A model generated the notes under the pieces. That model was not told the DNA's origin. It did not search any database and worked only from the letters and a program-made list of their open reading frames with translations. A stretch of 46,561 nt of DNA, taken from Gammaproteobacteria bacterium. Lineage in GTDB: Bacteria; Pseudomonadota; Gammaproteobacteria; S012-40. The stretch is from positions 1 to 46,561 of the forward strand of contig JAOUMY010000018.1 in assembly GCA_029881255.1 (NCBI GenBank), in the 5' to 3' direction. Each line of letters begins with the position of its first letter. Position 1 is the stretch's first letter. A program made the position numbers and the translations under genes. Below, one piece after another: positions 9,700 to 30,978 of the stretch.

Positions 9700-11187
9700 T
9701 TAACTGAGCTTGCTGACTACCAAGCTTCGGATATCTTCGGCGGCATCTTTCATCCGCGCGATTGCCGATTTCCTGATCAACCACATAAACAATAGCAGCA
9801 AAGTCACTAACAACACCGCATGCAAATGATACTCGATCAAATTCTTTCCCAGAGAAACATAGTCGCCTGTGGTAATGCTCTTCATGATCAGACTCCACAG
9901 ACTCACATTGTCGTCTTCATCATATATCGAGTAATACACCACATATGCCACGACAAAGGCCGTTAGATCGGCAAGCCCGCCATACAACCATTTGCGTATA
10001 TTAATTCCACGATTGATGATTTTCTGTTGCTTGTTGCGCTCATCGTCCTCACTTAAGTCTATCGTTTTTGCTTTTGCATCCAGGTCAGAACCGACAATAT
10101 CGCACTTGCTCGGCAACACAAACGGCGCATAATTGGCCGTGCGTTTTTTCAGACGTTCACAGGTACTTTCATGGACCTTGATATTTCCTAACAGCCTACC
10201 CTCGCACAGCCTGGTAATGATGCGTGGGTGATAGCGATAATAAATCGCAAACCCATCACGGGAATTGTATAGACGCCCGTGGATATTACTATCCTGATAA
10301 ACACCTTCCACGAATCCCGGTTTAAACTTTAAACCCTGTTGCTGCGCCCTAAGCATCATCCAGTGCATAGTGACATTGGCCATACCCTGACGTTCATAAC
10401 CCCCACCCACATTTGAATGCATCCCCGAGAACCATACCTGTTCAACATCCTGCGGAGTACGCCCTGCCTTTACCTCGTCCCAAACCTTGGGCCAGAAGGC
10501 CGTGCGTTCATCATCTATTGCCAGCGCTTGATAGGCATGTTTGATGTTCTTCGACAATTCGTAGTTATAAAAGAGATGAGGCCAGACCAGATTACTAAGT
10601 CGTTCCAGACACCAGAACACAACACTGAGTATATTTAATGTAATCCCCATTCTGTCGGTGCGCTTGGGAAAGCCAAGAGCCGATACCGTGTCCCATACAC
10701 CAACAAAATGAATATCGATAATCCCATGAGAATGTCGATGGGTGCGAAATCGTTCTGCCCGTTGCGGGTCTTTACGGTGAGACTCATAGGCTTCAAATGC
10801 GTCGCAGGTATAATCTTTTAACTGTTCGTCTGACAGAGGCTTGCCATTGACCAGGCCCACTGCATTGATGAAACCACAAAATCCACGTATCGTTGCCGCG
10901 CCTCGGCTAAAGCCAAATAAAAACACCTTGTCGCCAGGCACATAGTTCAGCGAAAGAAAGCGGTACAAATCCATGACATTGTGCTTGATACCGATTCCGA
11001 TCGCCCCGGTGAAGGCGCGCCAATATTTATTGGTCGAAGTGCCAACGCCGTTATCGTAAAAAGTATATTGAGAAACCGACTTGTCATGAATCTCGATGGC
11101 CTTATACATCTTATAGACATTGCTGTCCGGTGTATAACCACCCTTGTTGCCGGTTCCATCGGCGCACAAAATGATATTCTTTGCCAT
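9700..11187 (-). CDS. DUF2235 alpha/beta hydrolase with C-terminal membrane anchor
   Basis: 495 residues. The DUF2235 lipase domain fills residues 1-380, opening with IILCADGTGN. The nucleophile motif GFSRGAA has S94, the acid is probably D166 (FVGVWDTVSA) and the histidine H257 (GMHSNVGGGY), the order found in Tle1-type phospholipases. Two hydrophobic segments (~406-430 and ~455-475) end the chain, with a short charged tail, so the enzyme is likely anchored to the inner membrane with the catalytic part cytoplasmic (no signal peptide). RBS AAAGGA lies 8-9 nt before the ATG at 11187. It is upstream of and close to the exported S1/P1 nuclease. A type VI effector role is not supported because no VgrG, PAAR or immunity gene is adjacent. 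A second DUF2235 protein without anchor is encoded at 28887-29966. Confidence 0.88.
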   Translation of the reverse strand: MAKNIILCADGTGNKGGYTPDSNVYKMYKAIEIHDKSVSQYTFYDNGVGTSTNKYWRAFTGAIGIGIKHNVMDLYRFLSLNYVPGDKVFLFGFSRGAATIRGFCGFINAVGLVNGKPLSDEQLKDYTCDAFEAYESHRKDPQRAERFRTHRHSHGIIDIHFVGVWDTVSALGFPKRTDRMGITLNILSVVFWCLERLSNLVWPHLFYNYELSKNIKHAYQALAIDDERTAFWPKVWDEVKAGRTPQDVEQVWFSGMHSNVGGGYERQGMANVTMHWMMLRAQQQGLKFKPGFVEGVYQDSNIHGRLYNSRDGFAIYYRYHPRIITRLCEGRLLGNIKVHESTCERLKKRTANYAPFVLPSKCDIVGSDLDAKAKTIDLSEDDERNKQQKIINRGINIRKWLYGGLADLTAFVVAYVVYYSIYDEDDNVSLWSLIMKSITTGDYVSLGKNLIEYHLHAVLLVTLLLLFMWLIRKSAIARMKDAAEDIRSLVVSKLS

Positions 11188-16394: not shown

Positions 16395-18857
16395 TTAAAA
16401 CTCTACACCCGCATACACCGCTGGCCAAAAACTGAAGCTGCTCCGCCCGATGCTGAAGTTCACAGGTTGAATGGAAGCCTTAAGTTCCTTTCCGTCACTA
16501 CGTGGATCGACCAGAAAGTTCAGACTCGCGCCAGCATGTACACTCAGAAAACGCGCCAGTCGCAGGTGCGCGGCCGAGCGTATGGAAACCGTATTGTTAC
16601 TTTGTGAACAAAAGACACACAGCGGATCAATACCTAACTGACTGGCGATATCCAATACCTGGGTTTCGGTATCACCGCTCTGGCTGCCGTAATAGCGTAT
16701 ATCGCTAGCAAACATAATATCGCTATCAATATAGCTACGAGGCGATACGTTATAAGTGAAACCGATCGCCCACTTTGAACGCCAGTGCGATTGTGTACTA
16801 TCAGTACTCAGACCTAAAAGATTGTAAATCCGCTTTGTACCAGTCTTATACGACAACATCATGTCTGACAATTCATCAAGACTAATACCGATATCGTGTC
16901 TACCATTACCATAGATGGACAGCAAGCCGACGGGGACACCGGAAAACTCCCGCGCGAAATTAAAAAGACCGACGTGTACACCGGTCGCCTTTCCTGCGAC
17001 GTTAATCGAAGAAACCTGTACGCCCTTCAATTCCTTTGCGACATTGAAACCCGCCGATACCTGAACGCCTTTGAGATTTTTCGCGACATTAAATCCCGCC
17101 GTACCCTGCACGCCGTTCATGTCGCCAGCTGAAATATTAAACCCGGCGCTTCCCTGAGTACCGCGCATGTTTCCGTAGGCGATATTGAAACCCGCCGCCC
17201 CTTGTCCGCCATCGAAATCACCTTTGACGATATTAAAACCGGCGGCGCCCATGCCACCTTTTCCGCCACCAAGCGCGATGTTGAACCCGGCGGCACCCAT
17301 GCCGCTATTGTTCAACCTTCCACCAACGATGTTGAATCCGGCAGCGCCCATGCCGCCTTTCATATCGCCTCGAATGACATTAAAGCCGGCGGCACCGACA
17401 CCGCCGTCGATCAGGTCACCACTAATAATATTGAACACGCCACTTCCCATGGCGCCTTCCAGATTGCCACCGACAAAGTTGAAAACACCAGCCCCTTGCC
17501 CACCTTTCAAATTACCGTTAACAATATTCGCGATACCGGTTCCCTGCCCACCTTCAAAATCACCTCCAACAAAGTTAACCATCGAACTCGCATTAAACCA
17601 CTTCGCATCTTCACGATAAAAGGTAATCAAACTGCCTAAGCCGACACCTTCCAATCTGTCGGTTTGACCCGCAAGCAGATTAACATCGAATTTTACGATT
17701 TCCTTTTTTCCCATTGATGGTGGATTCTCATACTCCATATCGGGAAACAAAGAAATCTTCACTTCCACTTCTGCGTATTCACTGCGATCTATCGGCGGTT
17801 TGTCACCGCGTGCGAGCGCGACCTTGCGATCTACCGCCGTCGCATATTGTTCGTCGTATACAAAGCTTTTGTTATTCACCAATGTAAAGCCGACCTTGAG
17901 CAACTTCTCACCGTTGTCGACCAATATGGTATAGTCGCCGGGTTCCATGCCGAGGACGATTTCTCGTTCTGTATTCTTCTTCAATTCGACAATGAGTTGT
18001 TCCTTGCTATTACGTATATACACGCGACCACTAACTTCTTTTGGTATCACCAAGGTCGAACTCGCCTGATGCAAGTCAGTAAGCACGAGATCACCCGCCC
18101 CTGCTAATTGGATATCATAGGCGGCATGTTGCGCGCCAAAGAGACTGCTTTCAGTGCGTGCCAGCGTTTCATGAAAGGCAAACTGGTAGGCTTCGTTAAG
18201 TGTTACCCGCTTATCATTGGACAGATCACCCGCGCCTCGCAGACCAGAGACAAAATAGTGCGTAAAATAGGAACCCCCTATCGCATCGGACTCCTGCGCC
18301 GATTCATCCGCAGAACTGGACGCGAGATAGGCATGGCCAGATACTTTCGAAGACTCGTCTATCAAAAACGTCGGACGACGTTTTCCGCCTTTGATACGGG
18401 TAAATGCACCTGAGGCACACGAGTCGAGTATCGCAACCTTCACGTCGGAGCTGATTTCACCTATGGCCTTATGCAAACGTTTGTATTCCAGCAATTCCTC
18501 GCCAAGTAAAATTCCCGATTCGTTGGAGTGACCGGAATAATAAAAAATGAATTCATTGCGTGCGTCGGAGCGGCTGTGAGACCGGATATTTTCGCCCATG
18601 GCCGTGAGGCGCTGTATCAAATTCTCGGCTGTAGGCTCAAACAACACTTCGCTACGGGTAGCGTCTATGCCACCAAGATCGTCAAACACCTTCGCCACCA
18701 GGCGTGCGTCCGATTGCGCATAACGTAATGACACGCGATCTTTGCCGCCGTTATTTGCGCCGATAATCAGCGCGTAGCGATTGACCGCCGTCTGCTCAAG
18801 CGCAAAAACCGGCGAAACAACAAGCATGGAAACCAAAATCAAATGATGTATTTTCAT
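16395..18857 (-). CDS. Exported caspase-family (C14) protein with Gly-rich repeats and C-terminal barrel-like domain
   Basis: 820 residues. Signal peptide at 1-19 (MKIHHLILVSMLVVSPVFA). A caspase-fold domain spans ~25-260 with the catalytic dyad H110 (FIFYYSGHSNESG) and C147 (VAILDSCASGAF). A short beta domain (~268-395) follows. Then come about twelve repeats of ~17-20 residues (~425-650) with the core 'GxxGAAGFNIxxGDxxGG', resembling the surface repeats named LA_2272-type in Leptospira (from memory). Residues ~655-820 alternate aromatic and small residues and end in AVYAGVEF, a possible outer-membrane barrel with a C-terminal Phe. So the protease domain probably faces the periplasm or surface. 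RBS AGGAAG; the start is 2 nt after the stop of the anti-sigma gene, in an operon with the ECF sigma factor. Cleavage target unknown. Confidence 0.85.
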   Translation of the reverse strand: MKIHHLILVSMLVVSPVFALEQTAVNRYALIIGANNGGKDRVSLRYAQSDARLVAKVFDDLGGIDATRSEVLFEPTAENLIQRLTAMGENIRSHSRSDARNEFIFYYSGHSNESGILLGEELLEYKRLHKAIGEISSDVKVAILDSCASGAFTRIKGGKRRPTFLIDESSKVSGHAYLASSSADESAQESDAIGGSYFTHYFVSGLRGAGDLSNDKRVTLNEAYQFAFHETLARTESSLFGAQHAAYDIQLAGAGDLVLTDLHQASSTLVIPKEVSGRVYIRNSKEQLIVELKKNTEREIVLGMEPGDYTILVDNGEKLLKVGFTLVNNKSFVYDEQYATAVDRKVALARGDKPPIDRSEYAEVEVKISLFPDMEYENPPSMGKKEIVKFDVNLLAGQTDRLEGVGLGSLITFYREDAKWFNASSMVNFVGGDFEGGQGTGIANIVNGNLKGGQGAGVFNFVGGNLEGAMGSGVFNIISGDLIDGGVGAAGFNVIRGDMKGGMGAAGFNIVGGRLNNSGMGAAGFNIALGGGKGGMGAAGFNIVKGDFDGGQGAAGFNIAYGNMRGTQGSAGFNISAGDMNGVQGTAGFNVAKNLKGVQVSAGFNVAKELKGVQVSSINVAGKATGVHVGLFNFAREFSGVPVGLLSIYGNGRHDIGISLDELSDMMLSYKTGTKRIYNLLGLSTDSTQSHWRSKWAIGFTYNVSPRSYIDSDIMFASDIRYYGSQSGDTETQVLDIASQLGIDPLCVFCSQSNNTVSIRSAAHLRLARFLSVHAGASLNFLVDPRSDGKELKASIQPVNFSIGRSSFSFWPAVYAGVEF
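16908..17585 (-). repeat. Degenerate tandem coding repeats in the caspase gene
   Basis: About twelve units of 50-60 bp coding for 'GAAGFNI..GD..GG' within residues ~425-650. Units in the middle are the most alike, those at the edges diverged. They lie in frame and are protein repeats, not CRISPR. Confidence 0.8.
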
Positions 18858-18859
18858 AA

Positions 18860-19711
18860 TTACTTCCTCAACAGCAGGGAAGTTGAACGACTGTCTTTAC
18901 CAAAATCGACGTCCTGGGAAAAATCGTCTCTCAATTTACGTGTCAGTTCTTCAATGTGAAGCGACTCAAGATCGAACACCTCAGACCTGAAGACCAAAAA
19001 GAAGCGCTCAAAGGTCGGGGCATTATCCAGCTCATAGGCATGATTCAGCGCCACCGACTCTCCCACCTCAATAAATAGCGCACGGCCATTATGGGAAAGA
19101 TGCTCCGTAAGCACCCCGTTACCATCGATGGAAAAGACCAGGCCATAACCACTCTGTGCCACCGAATAGCGCAACTGTACAACATCGCCCTGAGACACCT
19201 TCGCACCATTCTCCAATATTTCCTGGCCCGCCTCGGTCTTGCGATACAAACTGAGTGTCAGTTCATCTCCCTTCATGCGTTCTATTGGGATACCATCAAT
19301 CAGCTGACCATTTTGTACATGCTGTTGCACTGCGTCGGGCTGCATCAGAAGAAAGGCAAAAGTGGCGACCATTAATACCGGTAAAGCGTACGCGAGCCGC
19401 GACCACGCCAGCACCGGTCGAACACTATCAGGATTTTTCGGCTTACGCTTGAGTCGTATTTCAATTCGGCTTCCCGAATTTTGCTTTTGTCGCTCCGCCT
19501 GCTTCCTCTGAATCTGCTGCGCCATGTACTCCGGCGTATATTGGTCAAGTATTTCATCACTCGACTCTTGCAACTGTTCTACGCGCTCGCGCAATTCTGC
19601 ATCGGACGTGATTTGAATCCGAATTTCCGTGGTACGTTTTTCGTCGAGTTCACCGAGCATGTATTGCTCGAGATCGAGATCGGTCCAGGATTTTCCTGTC
19701 TTGGCGTTCAC
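18860..19711 (-). CDS. Membrane-spanning anti-sigma factor
   Basis: 283 residues. The cytoplasmic N-terminus (LEQYMLGELDEKRTTEIRIQ.., ~12-50) has the usual anti-sigma helix pattern 'L..Y..GEL....'; no zinc-binding His-Cys motif is visible. A basic linker precedes one transmembrane helix (~105-123, RLAYALPVLMVATFAFLLM). The periplasmic C-terminal domain (~130-283) resembles DUF4384-type sensor domains with 'GDVVQLRYSVAQSGYGLVFS'. It would hold the ECF sigma factor at the membrane and release it on an envelope signal. The start is a GTG at 19711 with GGAGGG 6-7 nt upstream; it overlaps the sigma stop by 4 nt (GTGA). The neighbouring exported caspase could be its effector or its regulator; cleavage of this protein by the caspase is an untested possibility. 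Confidence 0.75.
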   Translation of the reverse strand: MNAKTGKSWTDLDLEQYMLGELDEKRTTEIRIQITSDAELRERVEQLQESSDEILDQYTPEYMAQQIQRKQAERQKQNSGSRIEIRLKRKPKNPDSVRPVLAWSRLAYALPVLMVATFAFLLMQPDAVQQHVQNGQLIDGIPIERMKGDELTLSLYRKTEAGQEILENGAKVSQGDVVQLRYSVAQSGYGLVFSIDGNGVLTEHLSHNGRALFIEVGESVALNHAYELDNAPTFERFFLVFRSEVFDLESLHIEELTRKLRDDFSQDVDFGKDSRSTSLLLRK

Positions 19712-20199
19712 ACTCTGCCCTCCAGTTCATTGACCTGAGCCTTGAGTTGGCGTAGTCGTTTTCTCACTCCGGAAACTGACATACCGACTGCTCTGGCAGT
19801 GTCTTCGAGGGTATAGCCGTCATGCAGATGCAAGGTCGCAATCGTGCGCGTGGACTCGGGATGACGATCAAAAATTCGGTTCAGCATCATGTTGGCTATT
19901 ATCCCCTGTTCCGGTTCTTCCAGTACGGCTATCCTTTCCAACACTCCTTCCTGTTCGTCGAGGGAATCGGCACTCTTGCGCCGATGACTGCGGATGATGT
20001 TGAGACATATATTGGTGGCCATGGTGTATAACAGCGAAGAAAGTCCCTGGTCTTCCAGGCTGTCCCGCTTTTCCAGCAGATTGACGAACACATCCTGCAT
20101 GGCCTCGACCGCGTGCGCCTCGTTTTCCAATAGCTGGCGGCAACGGCGCAATACCATAGGGCCGTATTTCCGATATAAGGACTCTACATCCAGCGCCAA
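19708..20199 (-). CDS. ECF-type RNA polymerase sigma factor
   Basis: About 163 residues with sigma region 2 (~5-75: LYRKYGPMVLRRCRQLLENE, then EAMQDVFVNLL and LLYTMATNICLNIIRSHRRK) and region 4 (~105-155: STRTIATLHLHDGYTLEDTA, then VGMSVSGVRKRLRQLKAQV). Region 3 is absent, as in ECF factors. The frame is open to a GTG at 20232, but that codon lies inside the predicted -10 element. A TTG at 20199 with a perfect GAGGAG 6 nt upstream fits the promoter, the leader and the protein family better, so I chose it. It is first in an operon with the anti-sigma factor and the exported caspase. The shared promoter motif on both sides of the intergenic region indicates autoregulation and control of the TonB operon. 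Confidence 0.85.
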   Translation of the reverse strand: MALDVESLYRKYGPMVLRRCRQLLENEAHAVEAMQDVFVNLLEKRDSLEDQGLSSLLYTMATNICLNIIRSHRRKSADSLDEQEGVLERIAVLEEPEQGIIANMMLNRIFDRHPESTRTIATLHLHDGYTLEDTARAVGMSVSGVRKRLRQLKAQVNELEGRV

Positions 20200-20223
20200 T
20201 TCATTCTCCTCGTCGGTTTCAAT

Positions 20224-20255
20224 ATGAAACACCGCGACAAAGCCAAAGTGTCACT
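20224..20255 (-). promoter_or_regulatory. Predicted ECF sigma promoter, sigma/anti-sigma/caspase operon
   Basis: On the minus strand AGTGACACTTTG, then 10 nt, then GGTGTTTCAT. The same two blocks with the same spacing occur upstream of the TonB receptor. A start of transcription near 20217 would leave a short leader carrying GAGGAG and the TTG start. Confidence 0.7.
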
Positions 20256-24946: not shown

Positions 24947-26026
24947 TTATATTGGCACTACCAATCCCGGATTATCTTCTGACGGGTAATACGCTTCATA
25001 CTTATATTTGTTTATATACTTTGGTTTTTTCCATATTTTGTTTGTTGTTGAAAGGTAATTAAAATAGAGTTTAACAGGCTTTCTGTTTGATTTTATAACT
25101 CTCGCAATAGTTTCAACATCCGGATGAGAGTGCCTACTACCGTTTGTCGAAAATAAGTATTTTTGGCAATTTATTAGCTTAAGTAGTTCCATACTCGTAT
25201 TCGACTTACTTCCATGATGTGACACCTTCAGTGCATCAATATTGAGTGTCTCTGCCCCCGTTTGTTCAAGCACCTTTTTTATTGAGCTTTCCAAAACATG
25301 AGAATGGGCATCACCACTAAAAATAATTCGCTTTACTCGGTTGTCATCGTATATATCCGTATATTCTGCGAGAAAGGCAATACTGCTGCCATTAGGGGCA
25401 GTGCTGTCCGGTTCGAAAGTCCCTCTGGCCAGTTGTTCAATATCTGGCTCCCCGAGCACATCGGGCTGAAGTGCAGTTGGAGTTTCCTCCAGCATCTCAT
25501 CTAAAGTCTGCTCCTTTAGTAGAGAGTCGAGATCTTTATTCCATTTGTTTAGTAGATCATCCAGTTGTTCGCCTCCGGGAGAAAGTAAGGTAATAATCAA
25601 TCCACCGGGAAGCTTTACTGGATCTACATGCTCAACATCTTGTAAATATATTGCCCGATTTCCATACTGAGAATTCCAACTAAATCCCTTATCCTCAATA
25701 TATTTTGTAAAATATTCCGCTTGGCGAGCACCCAACGTATCGTCGATCATTTCACGTCCATTGAACCAGATTTCACTTATATGGTCCGTCGTAACGCGTT
25801 TGTCTGCAATAAACGGCACTGCACCCGCAATATGATCTCCATCAATATGCGTAAGAACCAGAAGCTCAAACGTGATATCTGGATTCTTATCAATTCGATC
25901 CATAATGAGCCTGTATGTTGATTTATATCCACAGTCAATTAGAATTCTGTTAGGATTTTTTGGATTTCCATACTCTATCCAAAGTGCATCACCTTCTCTT
26001 GCGGGTAACATTTCAATAGTAAACAT
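24947..26026 (-). CDS. ComEC-type metallo-beta-lactamase-fold hydrolase, stand-alone
   Basis: 359 residues, no signal or membrane segment. The MBL motif is HIDGDH at 60-65 (H60, D62, D64, H65), with D239 (IIFSGDAH) and H270/H271 (LKVSHHGSKSN), the pattern of the soluble domain of ComEC/Rec2. The opening 'MLPAREGDALWIEYG..ILIDCG' is typical of short stand-alone relatives. These are presumed nucleases or phosphodiesterases and often sit next to effector or protease genes. An acidic insert lies at ~150-210. It starts 3 nt after the CHAT gene stop, so both are tightly co-translated. In this context it could be a nuclease effector or an activity that controls the protease. Substrate unproven. Confidence 0.85.
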   Translation of the reverse strand: MFTIEMLPAREGDALWIEYGNPKNPNRILIDCGYKSTYRLIMDRIDKNPDITFELLVLTHIDGDHIAGAVPFIADKRVTTDHISEIWFNGREMIDDTLGARQAEYFTKYIEDKGFSWNSQYGNRAIYLQDVEHVDPVKLPGGLIITLLSPGGEQLDDLLNKWNKDLDSLLKEQTLDEMLEETPTALQPDVLGEPDIEQLARGTFEPDSTAPNGSSIAFLAEYTDIYDDNRVKRIIFSGDAHSHVLESSIKKVLEQTGAETLNIDALKVSHHGSKSNTSMELLKLINCQKYLFSTNGSRHSHPDVETIARVIKSNRKPVKLYFNYLSTTNKIWKKPKYINKYKYEAYYPSEDNPGLVVPI

Positions 26027-26029
26027 GAA

Positions 26030-28825
26030 TTATACTCCCGATTGCCCAACAACTTCCCAGTCCGCGTCGCCCAATGCCGTTAATGCCATAACCATTGGCG
26101 TACCTTTTTCAAGCATACGACATCGTACATTTCTCAAAACACTTCCAAAGGGAGTTGAACTAGGTAGATTTGCTAATTCTTCGATTATCTCCGCTGCGAG
26201 AGGAGCAGCCTGGCGCCCCAGTATTCGCGCAATTGTGCTGACAACGATTACCGCGCCCTCCGTATGAAAACGAAACGCGATATTTTCATAACTAATATCA
26301 GCCAGAGACGTCTCACAGCCGATTAAAAGAAATACTGGATGCGTTAGTTGCGGTACATGAGCAGTTTTGATCAGATCGCTGTTGAGATTCGGTGGCTGAC
26401 CAATATCGAGCTCGGGTGTACCGTAGTCATCTTCCTCCTGATGCACAATTAAAGTCAGCAAAGACGGATTAATATCTGCAACCGCACCTTTCCACTCATC
26501 CCAGTTGTGAACTTCCCGAAACTTGCCAACTACAGCCTTAATCCGTTCAATCATCTTCTTGGTTGCATCTGGGTCCGACGGAGGATTCGCTTTGTCTGTT
26601 GCACCGACAACAGCTGAGACAGTCGGATTAAGAATTCTATCGCCTAAAAGAACTGGCTCAGAGATCACTCTTGCGTCTCCATTAATATCTTCCTCATCAG
26701 GTCTGTGCGCACGACGTTCAATAATGCATCGAATCCCCCAAAAAGCTACTGGACAAATAATTTGATCTTCCGGTTGATCAGGACAACCTCCTGGACATCG
26801 ACCGCTGTCTAGTGAATCATTTCTCGCAAATTCCAAGGCCCTTGCAGCATTGACACATAATGCAGCGGTTGGCTCGGGAGCTGGAAAGTCGTAAAAGAAT
26901 TCGATAGGGAGGACTTTTGTCGGATCAGCAATAATGAGTTGTATATGCGAAACATTTGATAGATTGAAGCCCTGAACCGTCTGGAGGTACTTACGAAACG
27001 AGGCACCTTTTTGAGCAAGACGGCGCAACAATTTGGTACTTCCGGACGCGAACAGGCCACTAAAATCATCTGGATTTTCCGTTATTTGTCCTATAGATGC
27101 ACCAATGATTTTTATAAGACCTTGTATATCCTGATGGTCCCATTTCAGTACCGCGGCCTGGCTTCCCCCTGAGAGATGTACTTGAGACAGACCAGCGATA
27201 TCATTGACAACCATTGCTAAATCAAAATTTAAACGTTCATCAAGTCCGTTTAATACTCTTCTTGGCACAGCATCGAGAACAAAAGAGTACTCACACGATT
27301 TACGTCCTACTGGGGCAATTAATATCCCGGTCTGCAATACTCGATTCTTATGTAGTAGAGTTATACGCGCGTGAAGTTCAACAATTCTGGCAGGCGTGTG
27401 GATAGAAAATCGACATACCTCACTATCGCCAACTGATGGCAAGTCTATGTGTTGAACCTGAGGAGCTTCGCTTACATTCTGCTCCCAGAATACGACTGTC
27501 AGTTGATGAGACCGACCATCGTCAAGTGGTTGTAATTTTGGAAATGCTTCAACACTCGCCAAATATTCTGAATTTCGAGCTCCCACAAAAACAAGTACTT
27601 CATACGGTTTATTTCGAACCAGAGGCTTATCGGTAACCGGGCTGTCTTTCCCCGGCATGGATATACCTGCTTGAAGGTAACGAGGGACGTTACTCTTGTC
27701 GTCATCCTGCTGAAGTTGCATTACTGTATGCCCAATAGCACTCGCCTCATCCGACTCGCGCAAAAAGCCATAATCCAGATGAACTTTTTCGATTTCCCGC
27801 CCCGCTTCTTCCCGAAGAAGAGTAGACTTCGGCAGACGCAAGAGCATAGCCGAAGAATTATCGATGGTAATCGACCTTGAGGCATTCTCCGGACGTTGCA
27901 AAATTTTTCCCAAGGTATGAACTCGATCTGAGATCCGTGACTTCGCAATAAGCCTCTCATCGATCACCAGCAAACCATTGCCTCCCGATACCTCAGTAAA
28001 CGCACAATCTATTGGAAGATTGTGCGACAGCACCTCTATCGCCTTGATCAGATTTTCTGCACCAGATGCAGGATTCGTCGCATTAATTAGGTATGCACCA
28101 TTGGCTTCTACCCCTCGGAAAAGAGGCGACAGATCTTCATAACGCATACCAGGATCTATTGGTTGACTAATGCACAAATATAAAAGGTCGGCGGATACGC
28201 CTCCCAGTCTTAAAGATTCCCTTGATAATTCTTCAACTACGTGACTGAGACTTAATCCTTCGCAAACAAGAATATCGCACTCTGTATGGCGCCTGTTCAA
28301 TTCTAAGACTTTATAAACGCAACCATTCCATCTATCCATTCCCTGGAGTGAATGACCAATGCCCCATCCAACAGGATGAGAAAAGTAGCCAATTCTAATT
28401 GGCCAGCGAAATCTTGGAATAGTCTTGGGTGCCGGCATAGAAACGAAATACGACCAGTGATCAATACCTGGTGTAACTTGGCTTGTGTGCTGTTTTAAAT
28501 AAATCCAGAACGCAATAGGGTCTATCTGTCCTGAACATTTCAGAGATATTCGCCTCTCATAAATTTGTGCTTTTCTTACTATAGCTACTAAAGTTTCGGA
28601 TCGAAGTTTTGATGACCAACTACCCGCCTCTATTGGCAACGAATCCACAAACCAGCTAAGTACATTTTCCCTATTATTTTCTAGGAGAGACAATAGGCCG
28701 TTCTCTTGCTCAGACGTGGAAAGTCCAATTCTTAACTCTTCCGGCACCAATCCCAAAGCAAGAATTGCTATCGCTAGATCTGACTCAGAAAGTTGCGCAC
28801 CCCAAGTTCCCAATATTCCTCGCAT
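26030..28825 (-). CDS. Large CHAT-domain (caspase-like) protease
   Basis: 931 residues. The C-terminal CHAT domain is recognised by: LIIADPTKVLPIEFFYDFP at ~623-641, equivalent to the 'PWELL' strand; a CP.AFWGIR..IER segment near 691-705; the proposed catalytic H795 (LTLIVHQEEDD) and C837 (PVFLLIGCETS); and the ending GDADWEV. An N-terminal helical segment (~1-95) could be an adaptor domain. Residues ~140-310 look like a further alpha/beta domain (IRIGYFSHPVGWG, SADLLYLCISQP), and a beta-rich part follows (~410-560). CHAT proteins are cysteine proteases activated by a partner or ligand. ATG 28825 is preferred over 28831 since GGGAGG then lies 7 nt upstream. It is the second gene of a three-gene operon with a DUF2235 hydrolase and an MBL hydrolase. 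Confidence 0.8.
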   Translation of the reverse strand: MRGILGTWGAQLSESDLAIAILALGLVPEELRIGLSTSEQENGLLSLLENNRENVLSWFVDSLPIEAGSWSSKLRSETLVAIVRKAQIYERRISLKCSGQIDPIAFWIYLKQHTSQVTPGIDHWSYFVSMPAPKTIPRFRWPIRIGYFSHPVGWGIGHSLQGMDRWNGCVYKVLELNRRHTECDILVCEGLSLSHVVEELSRESLRLGGVSADLLYLCISQPIDPGMRYEDLSPLFRGVEANGAYLINATNPASGAENLIKAIEVLSHNLPIDCAFTEVSGGNGLLVIDERLIAKSRISDRVHTLGKILQRPENASRSITIDNSSAMLLRLPKSTLLREEAGREIEKVHLDYGFLRESDEASAIGHTVMQLQQDDDKSNVPRYLQAGISMPGKDSPVTDKPLVRNKPYEVLVFVGARNSEYLASVEAFPKLQPLDDGRSHQLTVVFWEQNVSEAPQVQHIDLPSVGDSEVCRFSIHTPARIVELHARITLLHKNRVLQTGILIAPVGRKSCEYSFVLDAVPRRVLNGLDERLNFDLAMVVNDIAGLSQVHLSGGSQAAVLKWDHQDIQGLIKIIGASIGQITENPDDFSGLFASGSTKLLRRLAQKGASFRKYLQTVQGFNLSNVSHIQLIIADPTKVLPIEFFYDFPAPEPTAALCVNAARALEFARNDSLDSGRCPGGCPDQPEDQIICPVAFWGIRCIIERRAHRPDEEDINGDARVISEPVLLGDRILNPTVSAVVGATDKANPPSDPDATKKMIERIKAVVGKFREVHNWDEWKGAVADINPSLLTLIVHQEEDDYGTPELDIGQPPNLNSDLIKTAHVPQLTHPVFLLIGCETSLADISYENIAFRFHTEGAVIVVSTIARILGRQAAPLAAEIIEELANLPSSTPFGSVLRNVRCRMLEKGTPMVMALTALGDADWEVVGQSGV

Positions 28826-28886
28826 GGACATACCTCCCTACATTTTTCTCGAGCAAATCGATTTACCCCAATTAACCACGAGAAAG

Positions 28887-29966
28887 CTATACACACGGTT
28901 TTCCTCTTACTATTCGTGTGGTATTGACAGTTTTGGCATTGGGACTTTTCTCGAGATAGACTCCAAGATTCTCCGGCGAATAATGGCTAGCACTGTGATG
29001 CATACGATCAATACAGGTTTGGTGTAGTACCTCGCAACTGTCAGTATATTGACCGATCTTCCTCGTGATTGGCCCCATTACTCTATACATAGTCGTCATC
29101 GAATCGTTTAAGACTGAATTGAAGCACGGACGAAAATATTGAATATAATTATTATCCACTTCAAGACCAAGTACCTCTGCATGTTCTACTATCCAATGTA
29201 AAGATTCATTAGCCAAGCCATCCGGGTCATAGCTTCCACCCACATTGCTATGAACACCAGGAAACCAGGCTTGGACTAGCTGCCCACTCCAGTCAGCGGG
29301 GCGCCTCCAGATATCTGGAACGAACGGCTTTCTTTTTTCATCTACTGCGATGGCGTGTATTGCATTTTCAATTTTCGAATGTAAACCTACGGCATGGTAT
29401 TGGTATTTTTTCTTGTTGAATATTTGTCCAAGCAAACCAGGAGCACCTAACGCGCCAACTGTATCCCAAACACCGATCATGCGGATTAACGGACAAGGGC
29501 GTGTTCCCTTGACTTTTCGAAATGCCTTCTTCCACTGAGGTGAATCGGGTCCATCATTTCTTTCATAGCAGGCATATATTTCCGGAACATAATAGTCGTC
29601 ATCCTTTTCGATAAGACCGATTTTATACATGAATCCAGCAAGGCTACGTACAGTAAAGGCGCCACGACTAAACCCAAAGAAATAAAGTTCATCATCTTGC
29701 TCATAGTTATAAACGATGAAGCGGTATAGATTGCGAATATTCTCCTCGATTCCATGACCAAAGGCTCCGCCCGTAAATCGATCAGTAAATCCCCCCGTAC
29801 CTATACCGTCATGATAGTAAACTATCTGGTCTACACCTTGACTTGACCGAGGCTTGATAGCACGCGCTAGTTTAGTTACGTTTGTTGGGCGTCTTTTTCC
29901 AGTCTTCTTGTCGATCTGATCGCGAATATTCCAAGTACCATCAGCACAGATAACTATTCTTTTCAT
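28887..29966 (-). CDS. DUF2235 alpha/beta hydrolase (lipase-like)
   Basis: 359 residues, opening with RIVICADGTWN. The nucleophile is S100 in FFGFSRGAFTVR, the acid probably D168 (MIGVWDTVGALG) and the base H239 (FPGVHSNVGGSYD). This is a complete Ser-Asp-His set of the DUF2235 family, which includes Tle1 phospholipases. There is no signal peptide or membrane anchor, unlike the homologue at 9700-11187, and the chain ends soon after the domain. AGGAGT lies 8 nt before the chosen ATG at 29966; a GTG 18 bp upstream is in frame. It is the first gene of the operon with the CHAT protease and the MBL hydrolase. Acting on membranes when released is plausible but inferred. Confidence 0.87.
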   Translation of the reverse strand: MKRIVICADGTWNIRDQIDKKTGKRRPTNVTKLARAIKPRSSQGVDQIVYYHDGIGTGGFTDRFTGGAFGHGIEENIRNLYRFIVYNYEQDDELYFFGFSRGAFTVRSLAGFMYKIGLIEKDDDYYVPEIYACYERNDGPDSPQWKKAFRKVKGTRPCPLIRMIGVWDTVGALGAPGLLGQIFNKKKYQYHAVGLHSKIENAIHAIAVDEKRKPFVPDIWRRPADWSGQLVQAWFPGVHSNVGGSYDPDGLANESLHWIVEHAEVLGLEVDNNYIQYFRPCFNSVLNDSMTTMYRVMGPITRKIGQYTDSCEVLHQTCIDRMHHSASHYSPENLGVYLEKSPNAKTVNTTRIVRGKPCV

Positions 29967-29995
29967 ATCAAGCACTCCTTGCACAGCATCTATTC

Positions 29996-30024: not shown

Positions 30025-30717
30025 TTCATATTGTTATGCCATCGTTTCATTCCCTATCGCTACAATCGGATATTAATTTGAGACATCGCAGATCAACTGC
30101 AATAGCCTGATGACATCTGCAATTTAGTGTATGTAGATTGTAGTAACGCGAATATGTAACTGGTAACTAACTTCAGCATTGAAATGTGTACAAATTGAAT
30201 TGTTAAGCACCAACCGACAACACACGAAAATAATATAGCCGAAAGTTTTACTGTCACTCCCATCTGCCAAAATCAAACACGCTGCAATATGCGAGTGAAA
30301 ACGGTAATGCAATGGTTGATATCTGGTCTTGTTCGCTCTATGGAAACTGTGCTGATATAAAAATGGATACCTTGTTTACATGCTTTTGCATCTAGTTATC
30401 CTCTGAAGGATGCCATTGAGGTGTCAATACAAGCTGACTCTCTACGAGTTGTCATGTGTCAACCTCTGCGCAGCATTTTGCTTATTGATTGACCCAGTAT
30501 TTAGATCCTGGGGTTTCGCAATCCCACCACAGTAGGGCTTACTTATCTACAAAAAGGATCTTGGGCTTGCCCTTGTCCCACTTTGTTTCAAAATATAAAT
30601 CTGAGAAACTGGTCAACATATTTCATGTATCTTTTTCATTTATAAAGACCTATTTCCCTATATTTCCGGCATTTTTTGACGATAAATATTCTAGCAAATA
30701 CTGCTAGGAGATTTAGA
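30025..30717. other. Long intergenic region between divergent genes
   Basis: About 690 bp without a convincing gene; frames present are short, lack ribosome sites and have no protein-like pattern. It must hold the promoter of the small gene at 30718. No tRNA-like or repeat structure was recognised. Confidence 0.5.
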
Positions 30718-30930
30718 ATGAGTATGAAAATTAGAGGCAAAGTAGTTGCCGAGATGTCGCTTATCCAATTAGAAGGTTGGGCTGGTCACCCTGGTAAGGC
30801 CGGTGAACACGCCAGAGCAGAAATCAAGAGACGGACAGGCAAAGAGATCGCACGTCCGCCAAAAGGAACAAAGGCTCCTAAGTTCGAAACCCCAGTTGCG
30901 AACGACGACGCGAAAGAAGAAGCCGCCTAA
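30718..30930 (+). CDS. Small basic protein of unknown function
   Basis: 70 residues beginning MSMKIRGKVVAEMSL. I do not recognise the family. The N-terminal half could form a strand and helix (KVVAEMSLIQLEGWAG). The middle is rich in Lys, Arg and Gly (HPGKAGEHARAEIKRRTGK, then PPKGTKAPK) and the tail is acidic (NDDAKEEAA), a layout often seen in nucleic-acid-binding small proteins, though this is only a resemblance. The ribosome site is good (AGGAG, 8 nt upstream) and a textbook terminator follows within 12 bp. So this is an independent, probably well expressed gene and not a chance frame. It faces away from the defence-like operon and toward the biosynthetic cluster's end; no link is evident. 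Confidence 0.7.
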   Translation: MSMKIRGKVVAEMSLIQLEGWAGHPGKAGEHARAEIKRRTGKEIARPPKGTKAPKFETPVANDDAKEEAA

Positions 30931-30941
30931 TTATTGTTCCA

Positions 30942-30978
30942 AAAAAAATCCCTCTTCCTTTGGAAGAGGGATTTTTTT
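30942..30978 (+). terminator. Strong Rho-independent terminator
   Basis: 17-bp perfect stem including A/T flanks: AAAAAAATCCCTCTTCC (30942-30958), loop TTT, complement at 30962-30978 ending in a run of seven Ts. It lies 11 bp after the small gene. Because of the flanking A-tract it can also work on the other strand and stop leftward transcripts. Confidence 0.9.

What the first reader, a model, noticed from the sequence alone, without database searches (positions are those of the whole stretch)
26030..28825. Divergent CHAT protein with cysteine-rich insert and extra N-terminal domains
Between the 'PWELL'-like strand and the catalytic His lies C-x3-C-x9-C-x8-C (677, 681, 691, 700), which could bind a metal. 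The third cysteine lies in the CPxxFWG motif that I recall from CHAT relatives. The N-terminal ~600 residues hold a helical segment and an alpha/beta domain I cannot assign; these may sense the activator.
Basis: partly seen in the sequence, partly recalled or inferred. Interest (0 to 1): 0.5.

Follow-up and report, generated by a model that had tools for sequence, protein, structure and literature searches.

The report
CHAT protease paired with gated nuclease
This bacterial gene most likely makes a caspase-like protease that switches on the DNA-cutting enzyme encoded right behind it when infection is sensed; a conserved cysteine cluster and a lipase-like gene in front make it an unusual variant of a recently described immune mechanism.

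Summary
The 933-aa protein is a divergent CHAT (caspase-like) protease: its predicted fold matches Csx29/TPR-CHAT and separase, and His797/Cys839 are invariant in 18 of 18 aligned sequences. It is half of a conserved module: a metallo-beta-lactamase (MBL) gene follows at -14 to +17 nt in 17 of 17 aligned loci whose contig continues. These MBLs fall on the caspase-linked side of the 'gated pro-nucleases' that Tuck et al. (PMC12799240) showed to be activated by a partner protease (canu). In 15 of 17, D-x-[LM]-G occurs once in each gate loop; the two exceptions lost the Asp in both loops. I propose that the CHAT protease cuts there. The N-terminal part shows low-confidence helices, an alpha/beta domain faintly like a dead caspase, and an Ig-like sandwich; no metabolic enzyme was found. 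A Tle1-like lipase gene (DUF2235) precedes the pair and recurs in a minority of related loci. New variant of a known kind; cleavage, metal binding and phage defence are untested.

The parts
26030..28831 (-). CHAT protease gene, 933 aa (start possibly 28825)
28487..28831 (-). N-terminal helical segment, residues 1-115
   Evidence: predicted helices, pLDDT mostly under 60
27896..28411 (-). alpha/beta domain, residues 141-312; faint resemblance to a caspase/CHAT fold without the dyad
   Evidence: pLDDT 80-93 for residues 171-290; SAVED-CHAT Z 7.9, caspases Z 6.1-6.5; not confirmed by Foldseek or hhalign
27272..27679 (-). Ig-like beta-sandwich, residues 385-520
   Evidence: strands; transglutaminase 2, residues 384-511, Z 9.5
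26033..27214 (-). CHAT domain with its N-terminal extension, residues 540-933
26753..26857 (-). cysteine cluster C659, C679, C683, C693
   Evidence: C659, C683, C693 in 18 of 18, C679 in 5 of 18
26726..26728 (-).
   Evidence: 1 of 18
26441..26443 (-). catalytic His797
   Evidence: 18 of 18
26315..26317 (-). catalytic Cys839
   Evidence: 18 of 18
24947..26026 (-). gated MBL pro-nuclease gene, 359 aa, 3 nt after the CHAT stop
   Evidence: LmuA model 9e-78, Avs1a 1.2e-50; tree
25832..25849 (-). MBL metal motif HIDGDH, residues 60-65
   Evidence: H60, D62, D64, H65 invariant in 17
25730..25741 (-). predicted cut site in gate 1, DTLG, residues 96-99
25451..25462 (-). predicted cut site in gate 2, DVLG, residues 189-192
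28887..29984 (-). DUF2235 (Tle1-like lipase domain) gene, 55-61 nt before the CHAT gene; accessory role inferred
   Evidence: PF09994 5e-79; GFSRG at residue 104

Best explanation
The protein is the CHAT protease of a protease/pro-nuclease pair that works like the caspase-nuclease (canu) systems. Shown here by sequence and prediction: a CHAT-type fold with an invariant His-Cys dyad; an MBL gene directly behind it in every aligned locus that can be judged; an MBL on the caspase-linked side of the gated MBLs; D-x-[LM]-G in each of the two gate loops; a conserved cysteine cluster just before the caspase core. Inferred: an infection signal acts through the N-terminal and Ig-like region (oligomerisation is the mode reported for related systems), the CHAT protease becomes active and cuts both gate loops at D-x-[LM]-G, the nuclease site opens, and DNA is degraded, which stops the phage together with the cell. 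The cysteine cluster most likely holds one zinc ion that braces the segment before the protease core. The DUF2235 protein is probably an accessory second effector or modulator; this last step is the least certain.
For: Fold: Csx29/TPR-CHAT Foldseek E 2.6e-8, Z about 18, separase Z 18.6. H797 and C839 in 18 of 18. An MBL homologue directly follows in 20 of 22 loci; the other two end at the contig edge; distances -14 to +17 nt in the window and 16 genome loci. MBL tree: a 96/89 branch parts 4 trypsin- and 3 ABC-3C-linked MBLs from 26 rows that hold all 17 CHAT-linked and all 7 caspase-linked ones. D-x-[LM]-G exactly twice, once in each gate, in 15 of 17; shuffled gates reach two or more in 0.05-0.95% for those 15. 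The 2 exceptions (L008, L011) lost the Asp in both loops. Gate 1 Gly99 invariant in 17 of 17. Proteolytic activation of such MBLs, conserved Gly in both gates of canu nucleases and their need for defence: PMC12799240 (text parts 1-3 of 6).
Against: No cleavage, DNase, zinc or phage test exists for this family in what I read. The window CHAT domain scores no Pfam family. CHAT-linked MBLs do not form one supported clade (3 changes on the tree). D-x-[LM]-G is a short motif; it also occurs outside the gates in 2 of 17 MBLs (L015, L023) and within 11 of 18 CHAT proteins. Caspase-linked MBLs do not always keep a second-gate motif: 2 of 6 lack the E/D-x-[FYL]-G form, and a seventh, L067, has ESMG in gate 1 but none that I can see in gate 2. 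The two Asp losses may be one shared event, and rows are related, so the Fisher p of 0.007 overstates.
Confidence: 0.7

Rival explanations
1. The CHAT protein does not activate the MBL by cutting; the two act side by side or the CHAT protein only binds and holds the MBL, and the gate glycines are structural.
For: Glycines in loops are often structural; no cutting is shown here. Each gate motif is four residues only.
Against: The same motif stands in both loops, and in both exceptions the Asp is missing from both; the dyad is invariant; in canu, HamM and Avs1a gate-site mutants lose defence (PMC12799240).
Confidence: 0.15
2. The cysteines are a redox switch (disulphides or persulfides) or a fortuitous buried set rather than a metal site.
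For: Spacing differs between branches, the fourth cysteine moves, and L011 has only three cysteines (with three histidines in the segment). No coordinates of the model were at hand to measure distances.
Against: Cys-rich segments with three fixed and one movable ligand in a short loop are typical of structural zinc sites (recalled); 17 of 18 keep at least four.
Confidence: 0.3
3. The DUF2235 gene is an ordinary neighbour with no part in the system.
For: DUF2235 is common (60 of 398 genomes at E 1e-30); blastp found it in only 1 of 22 other CHAT loci, L011. The window has a second DUF2235 gene at 9700-11187.
Against: It adjoins the module in the window, in L011 (59% identical, overlapping the MBL by 4 nt) and in the caspase-MBL locus L025 (8 nt before the caspase); patatin-like genes adjoin L008 and, divergently, L026. 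None of 29 other DUF2235 loci with about 1.5-kb flanks has a CHAT, caspase or MBL neighbour of these families.
Confidence: 0.35
4. The MBL is not a DNase but a hydrolase of another substrate, for example a nucleotide signal or RNA.
For: MBL-fold enzymes are diverse; catalysis is untested here.
Against: Best matches are defence MBLs (LmuA, Avs1a); HamM of that kind cuts DNA and not RNA (PMC12799240).
Confidence: 0.1

Closest known systems
Canu (caspase-nuclease) systems, KaeCanABC, Tuck et al. 2025, PMC12799240
   Same: Clan CD-type protease gene with the MBL gene downstream; Ig-like fold in the protease; a Gly in both gates; MBL of the same side of the tree
   Different: One CHAT polypeptide in place of C14 caspase plus CanB; D-x-[LM]-G rather than E/D-x-[FYL]-G; cysteine cluster; P0001 has no similarity to six CanB-position proteins (E 3.6 or worse). 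The canu loci compared are my assignment by gene order, not named in the paper. Its main text does not contain the words CHAT, phospholipase or patatin
Trypsin-MBL pairs of AVAST type 1, Hachiman (HamMAB), Lamassu, DRT
   Same: Gated MBL homologue paired with a protease
   Different: Trypsin-like protease fused to a sensor, MBL usually upstream, Ile at the cut sites (PMC12799240); their MBLs lie on the other side of a 96/89 branch
TPR-CHAT / Csx29 (Craspase) and separase
   Same: Fold of residues 426-933
   Different: No gRAMP/Cas7-11 or Csx30 seen beside it; different N-terminal domains; partner is an MBL
Borvo BovA (PADLOC model)
   Same: Weak match in the CHAT core, E 1.6e-5, residues 770-893; 3 of 18 family members match
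   Different: Local match only; Borvo is, as I recall, a single-gene system

Membership tests
CHAT proteases | CHAT/caspase fold of the catalytic part | tested here: met
   Predicted model matches Csx29, separase and gingipain with Z 17-18.6
CHAT proteases | His-Cys dyad | tested here: met
   H797 and C839 in 18 of 18
CHAT proteases | Match to the Pfam CHAT model PF12770 | tested here: inconclusive
   None for the window protein; 3 of 17 members of the family match with the C-terminal domain, best 2.8e-4; 6 of 17 match Peptidase_C25, best 0.0062
CHAT proteases | Protease activity | not testable with these tools
   needs the bench
Canu | Gated MBL gene downstream of the protease gene | tested here: met
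Canu | MBL of the caspase-linked branch | tested here: met
   96/89 branch; place inside it unresolved
Canu | Conserved Gly in both gate insertions | tested here: met
   Gate 1 Gly 17 of 17; gate 2 D-x-[LM]-G in 15 of 17, LLG or WLG in the other 2
Canu | C14 (MALT1-like) caspase CanA as the protease | tested here: not met
   CHAT instead; no Pfam C14 match; no blastp similarity of value to six canu-like caspases
Canu | CanB-like protein | tested here: not met
   P0001 against six proteins at the CanB position: E 3.6 or worse; no such gene between P0001 and P0002 (3-nt gap)
AVAST type 1 / HamMAB | Trypsin-like protease partner | tested here: not met
   Neighbours are CHAT and DUF2235
AVAST type 1 Avs1a (NCBIfam NF041809) | Score at or above the curated cut-off (420 bits) | tested here: not met
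   P0002 scores 223.5 bits
Tle1-like lipase (DUF2235) | PF09994 match and GxSxG motif | tested here: met
   P0003 5e-79; GFSRG
Structural zinc site with four cysteines | Four ligands conserved together | tested here: inconclusive
   Three invariant; a fourth cysteine in the segment in 17 of 18, at one of two places

The most novel reading that the evidence does not exclude
A two-armed abortive immune operon: one CHAT protease, braced or gated by a zinc-binding cysteine cluster and carrying its own dead caspase-like domain as sensor, activates a DNase by cutting D-x-L-G in both gates and acts together with a co-encoded phospholipase, so that DNA and membrane are attacked at once.
Probability: 0.15. 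Interest if true: 0.78.

Novelty: new variant of a known kind. Interest (0 to 1): 0.55.

Why it matters
It would widen the protease/pro-nuclease principle from trypsins and C14 caspases to CHAT/separase-type proteases in one polypeptide, and it names exact cut sites to test (G99 and G192 of the window MBL). The motif differs from that of the caspase-linked MBLs looked at (D-x-[LM]-G against E/D-x-[FYL]-G), a natural case of protease and substrate changing together. The conserved cysteine cluster and the recurring lipase-type genes would be new regulatory or effector elements in this kind of system.

Tried and rejected
Relatives not found: in 56 genomes called relatives and in 398 of the phylum by protein and by profile only the own genome matched; none in phages, none in viral contigs, none in a single-sequence scan of genome contigs. 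The profile scan with A1 gave 18 loci; it depends on two short peptide patterns, so it is not a census.

N-terminal alpha/beta domain as a metabolic enzyme: Foldseek gave nothing at E 1e-3 or better (best an imine reductase, 3.7e-3); Pfam gave only single weak hits among 15 members. As a dead caspase: the second aligner puts SAVED-CHAT (Z 7.9) and caspases (Z 6.1-6.5) in its first ten rows, but its notes say Z under 8 may mean only a common arrangement, and profile comparison with the family's own catalytic domain shows nothing. Kept as a hint only. Residues 1-140 have too little confidence to say anything.

P0001 as a CanB: no similarity. Lipase as a substrate of the protease: P0003 and its homologues in L011 and L025 have no strict D-x-[LM]-G; P0003 has EVLG and ENLG, L011's EALG, L025's none. 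Promoters around the operon: 16 found, 17.1 expected. Solved structures by sequence: one chance-level hit, none by profile. Whether the supplement of the canu paper lists CHAT loci could not be seen (no supplement look-ups allowed). Papers on a CHAT-MBL pair: none noticed in the listings, which are capped lists.

Rows set aside: L024 (short contig) is in no alignment; L018 ends behind its CHAT gene and is in A4 only; the fused N-terminal caspase of L009 was left out of A4 by choosing a sub-range, and L009 was left out of A6, A7, A8 and A10; L011 begins near its contig edge and may be truncated; L011 and L021 were left out of A8, and L021 out of A9; plasmid loci L002-L005 are not in A4 or A5 (L002 and L005 have the same positions and scores as L013 and L019). 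Neighbour genes were scanned with Pfam for selected ORFs only (10 and 8 proteins), so the count of lipase neighbours is a lower bound.

Full report
What was checked. The ORF at window 26030-28831 (minus strand) encodes 933 aa. Three nt behind the gene starts a 359-aa MBL gene (24947-26026); 55-61 nt before it ends a DUF2235 gene (28887-29984). All are on one strand.

Families. P0001 (CHAT) has no Pfam or NCBIfam match and a weak PADLOC match to BovA, E 1.6e-5. P0002 (MBL) matches defence MBL models: LmuA 9e-78, Avs1a 1.2e-50, RTasMBL 5.1e-46; it is below NCBI's cut-off for Avs1a. P0003 is a Tle1-like lipase domain, 5e-79.

Relatives. tblastn against plasmids gave 5 records at 25-27% identity. 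A profile scan of genome contigs gave 18 loci, from an acidobacterium, an actinomycete, a Methanoperedenaceae archaeon and proteobacteria. In the 398 genomes of the phylum that were searched only the own genome has it. Among 22 loci an MBL homologue directly follows the CHAT gene in 20; L018 and L024 end at the contig edge. In the window and 16 genome loci the distance is -14 to +17 nt, with MBL starts chosen by homology.

Cysteines. In 18 aligned sequences C659, C683, C693 and C839 are the only cysteines of the window protein that are invariant. C679 is shared by the window and L007-L010; the 12 rows L012-L023 have a cysteine 6 residues after C659 instead. Seventeen of 18 rows have at least four cysteines in the segment; L011 has three, with three histidines. 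A metal site is plausible with C659/C679/C683/C693 but not shown.

Structure. The 18-row model has mean pLDDT 72.2. Residues 426-933 match Csx29/TPR-CHAT (Foldseek E 2.6e-8; Z about 18), separase (Z 18.6) and gingipain RgpB (Z 17.0). Residues 384-511 match an Ig-like domain of transglutaminase 2 (Z 9.5). A separate model of residues 1-385 (mean pLDDT 62.0; 80-93 in residues 171-290) has no Foldseek match at 1e-3. The second aligner ranks SAVED-CHAT and caspases first (Z 7.9 to 6.1); by its own notes this may be only a common arrangement, and hhalign against the family's catalytic domain finds nothing.

The nuclease partner. Tuck et al. (PMC12799240; I read parts 1-3 of 6 of the text, and passages) show that such MBLs are pro-nucleases with two gate insertions, cut after Ile by trypsin-like partners, and that caspase-linked ones (canu) have a conserved Gly in both gates whose mutation ends defence. 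In a tree of 33 MBLs, 4 trypsin- and 3 ABC-3C-linked ones are parted from the 26 others, which hold all 17 CHAT-linked and all 7 caspase-linked ones, by a branch of support 96/89. Inside that side the window's place is unresolved, and the CHAT label needs 3 changes. In the gate regions of the 17 CHAT-linked MBLs, D-x-[LM]-G occurs exactly twice in 15, once in each loop, and not at all in 2. Two thousand shuffles of each gate region give two or more in 0.05-0.95% for those 15. The two without it, L008 and L011, keep LG in both loops but lack the Asp in both; for L011's second loop this takes WLG, three residues or so from the aligned column. Caspase-linked MBLs (6 scanned) have E/D-x-[FYL]-G in gate 1 in 6 of 6 and in gate 2 in 4 of 6; a seventh, L067, has ESMG in gate 1 and no clear site in gate 2. 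L009, whose CHAT protein is fused to a C14 caspase, has DELG in both gates, the CHAT-type motif. This suggests, weakly, that CHAT does the cutting there.

Accessory genes. DUF2235 adjoins the pair in the window and in L011 (59% identical, overlapping the MBL by 4 nt), but in none of the other 21 CHAT loci by blastp; it also precedes a caspase-MBL locus, L025. A patatin adjoins L008's pair and, divergently, the caspase locus L026. L007 and L010 have a CHAT-NACHT/STAND protein behind the MBL. DUF2235 is common by itself (60 of 398 genomes), but 0 of 29 other DUF2235 loci with about 1.5-kb flanks has such neighbours. The association is suggestive, not proven.

Mechanism and standing. Protease activity, cutting, DNase activity, zinc and phage defence are inferred. 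Some loci lie near defence-like genes (a NERD-AAA/NACHT protein by L014, an FRG protein by L015), which is modest support. The module works like canu but is not a strict member: a C14 caspase and a CanB-like protein were looked for and not found. I call it a CHAT-type protease/pro-nuclease pair, a new variant of a known kind. No paper on it was noticed in the searches run; the supplement of the canu paper was out of reach.

Noticed in passing
window 9700-11187 (-): A second DUF2235 gene, 495 aa, with hydrophobic stretches near its C-terminus. By P0003 search both DUF2235 genes of this genome lie in the window.
   Followed up: partly
window 16395-20232 (-): Sigma-factor-like protein (174 aa, by eye), a 283-aa protein with one hydrophobic stretch, and an 820-aa C14 caspase with a signal-peptide-like start (PF00656 2.1e-11): a possible second, unrelated caspase system.
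   Followed up: no
L012-L023, CHAT proteins, at the position of window residues 543-547: D-x-L-G (NDSLG) stands just before the CHAT part in 8 of these 12 proteins; it could be a pseudosubstrate or self-cutting site. The window has NDIAG there.
   Followed up: no
L009:4901-8695 (+): C14 caspase fused to the N-terminus of a CHAT relative, followed by the MBL and another caspase gene, in a Methanoperedenaceae archaeon.
   Followed up: partly
L007:10314-13721, L010:8307-12158 (+): A second CHAT protein with NACHT/STAND-type ATPase matches directly behind the MBL gene, a possible sensor subunit.
   Followed up: no
L071:2844-6095, L031-L033, L068: Other gene settings of related MBLs: after a MoxR ATPase, before ABC-three-component genes, and three MBL genes in a row on a Runella plasmid.
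   Followed up: no
window 30676-30978 (+): An 84-aa ORF followed by a perfect 17-nt inverted repeat with a 3-nt loop and a T-run, a likely terminator.
   Followed up: no
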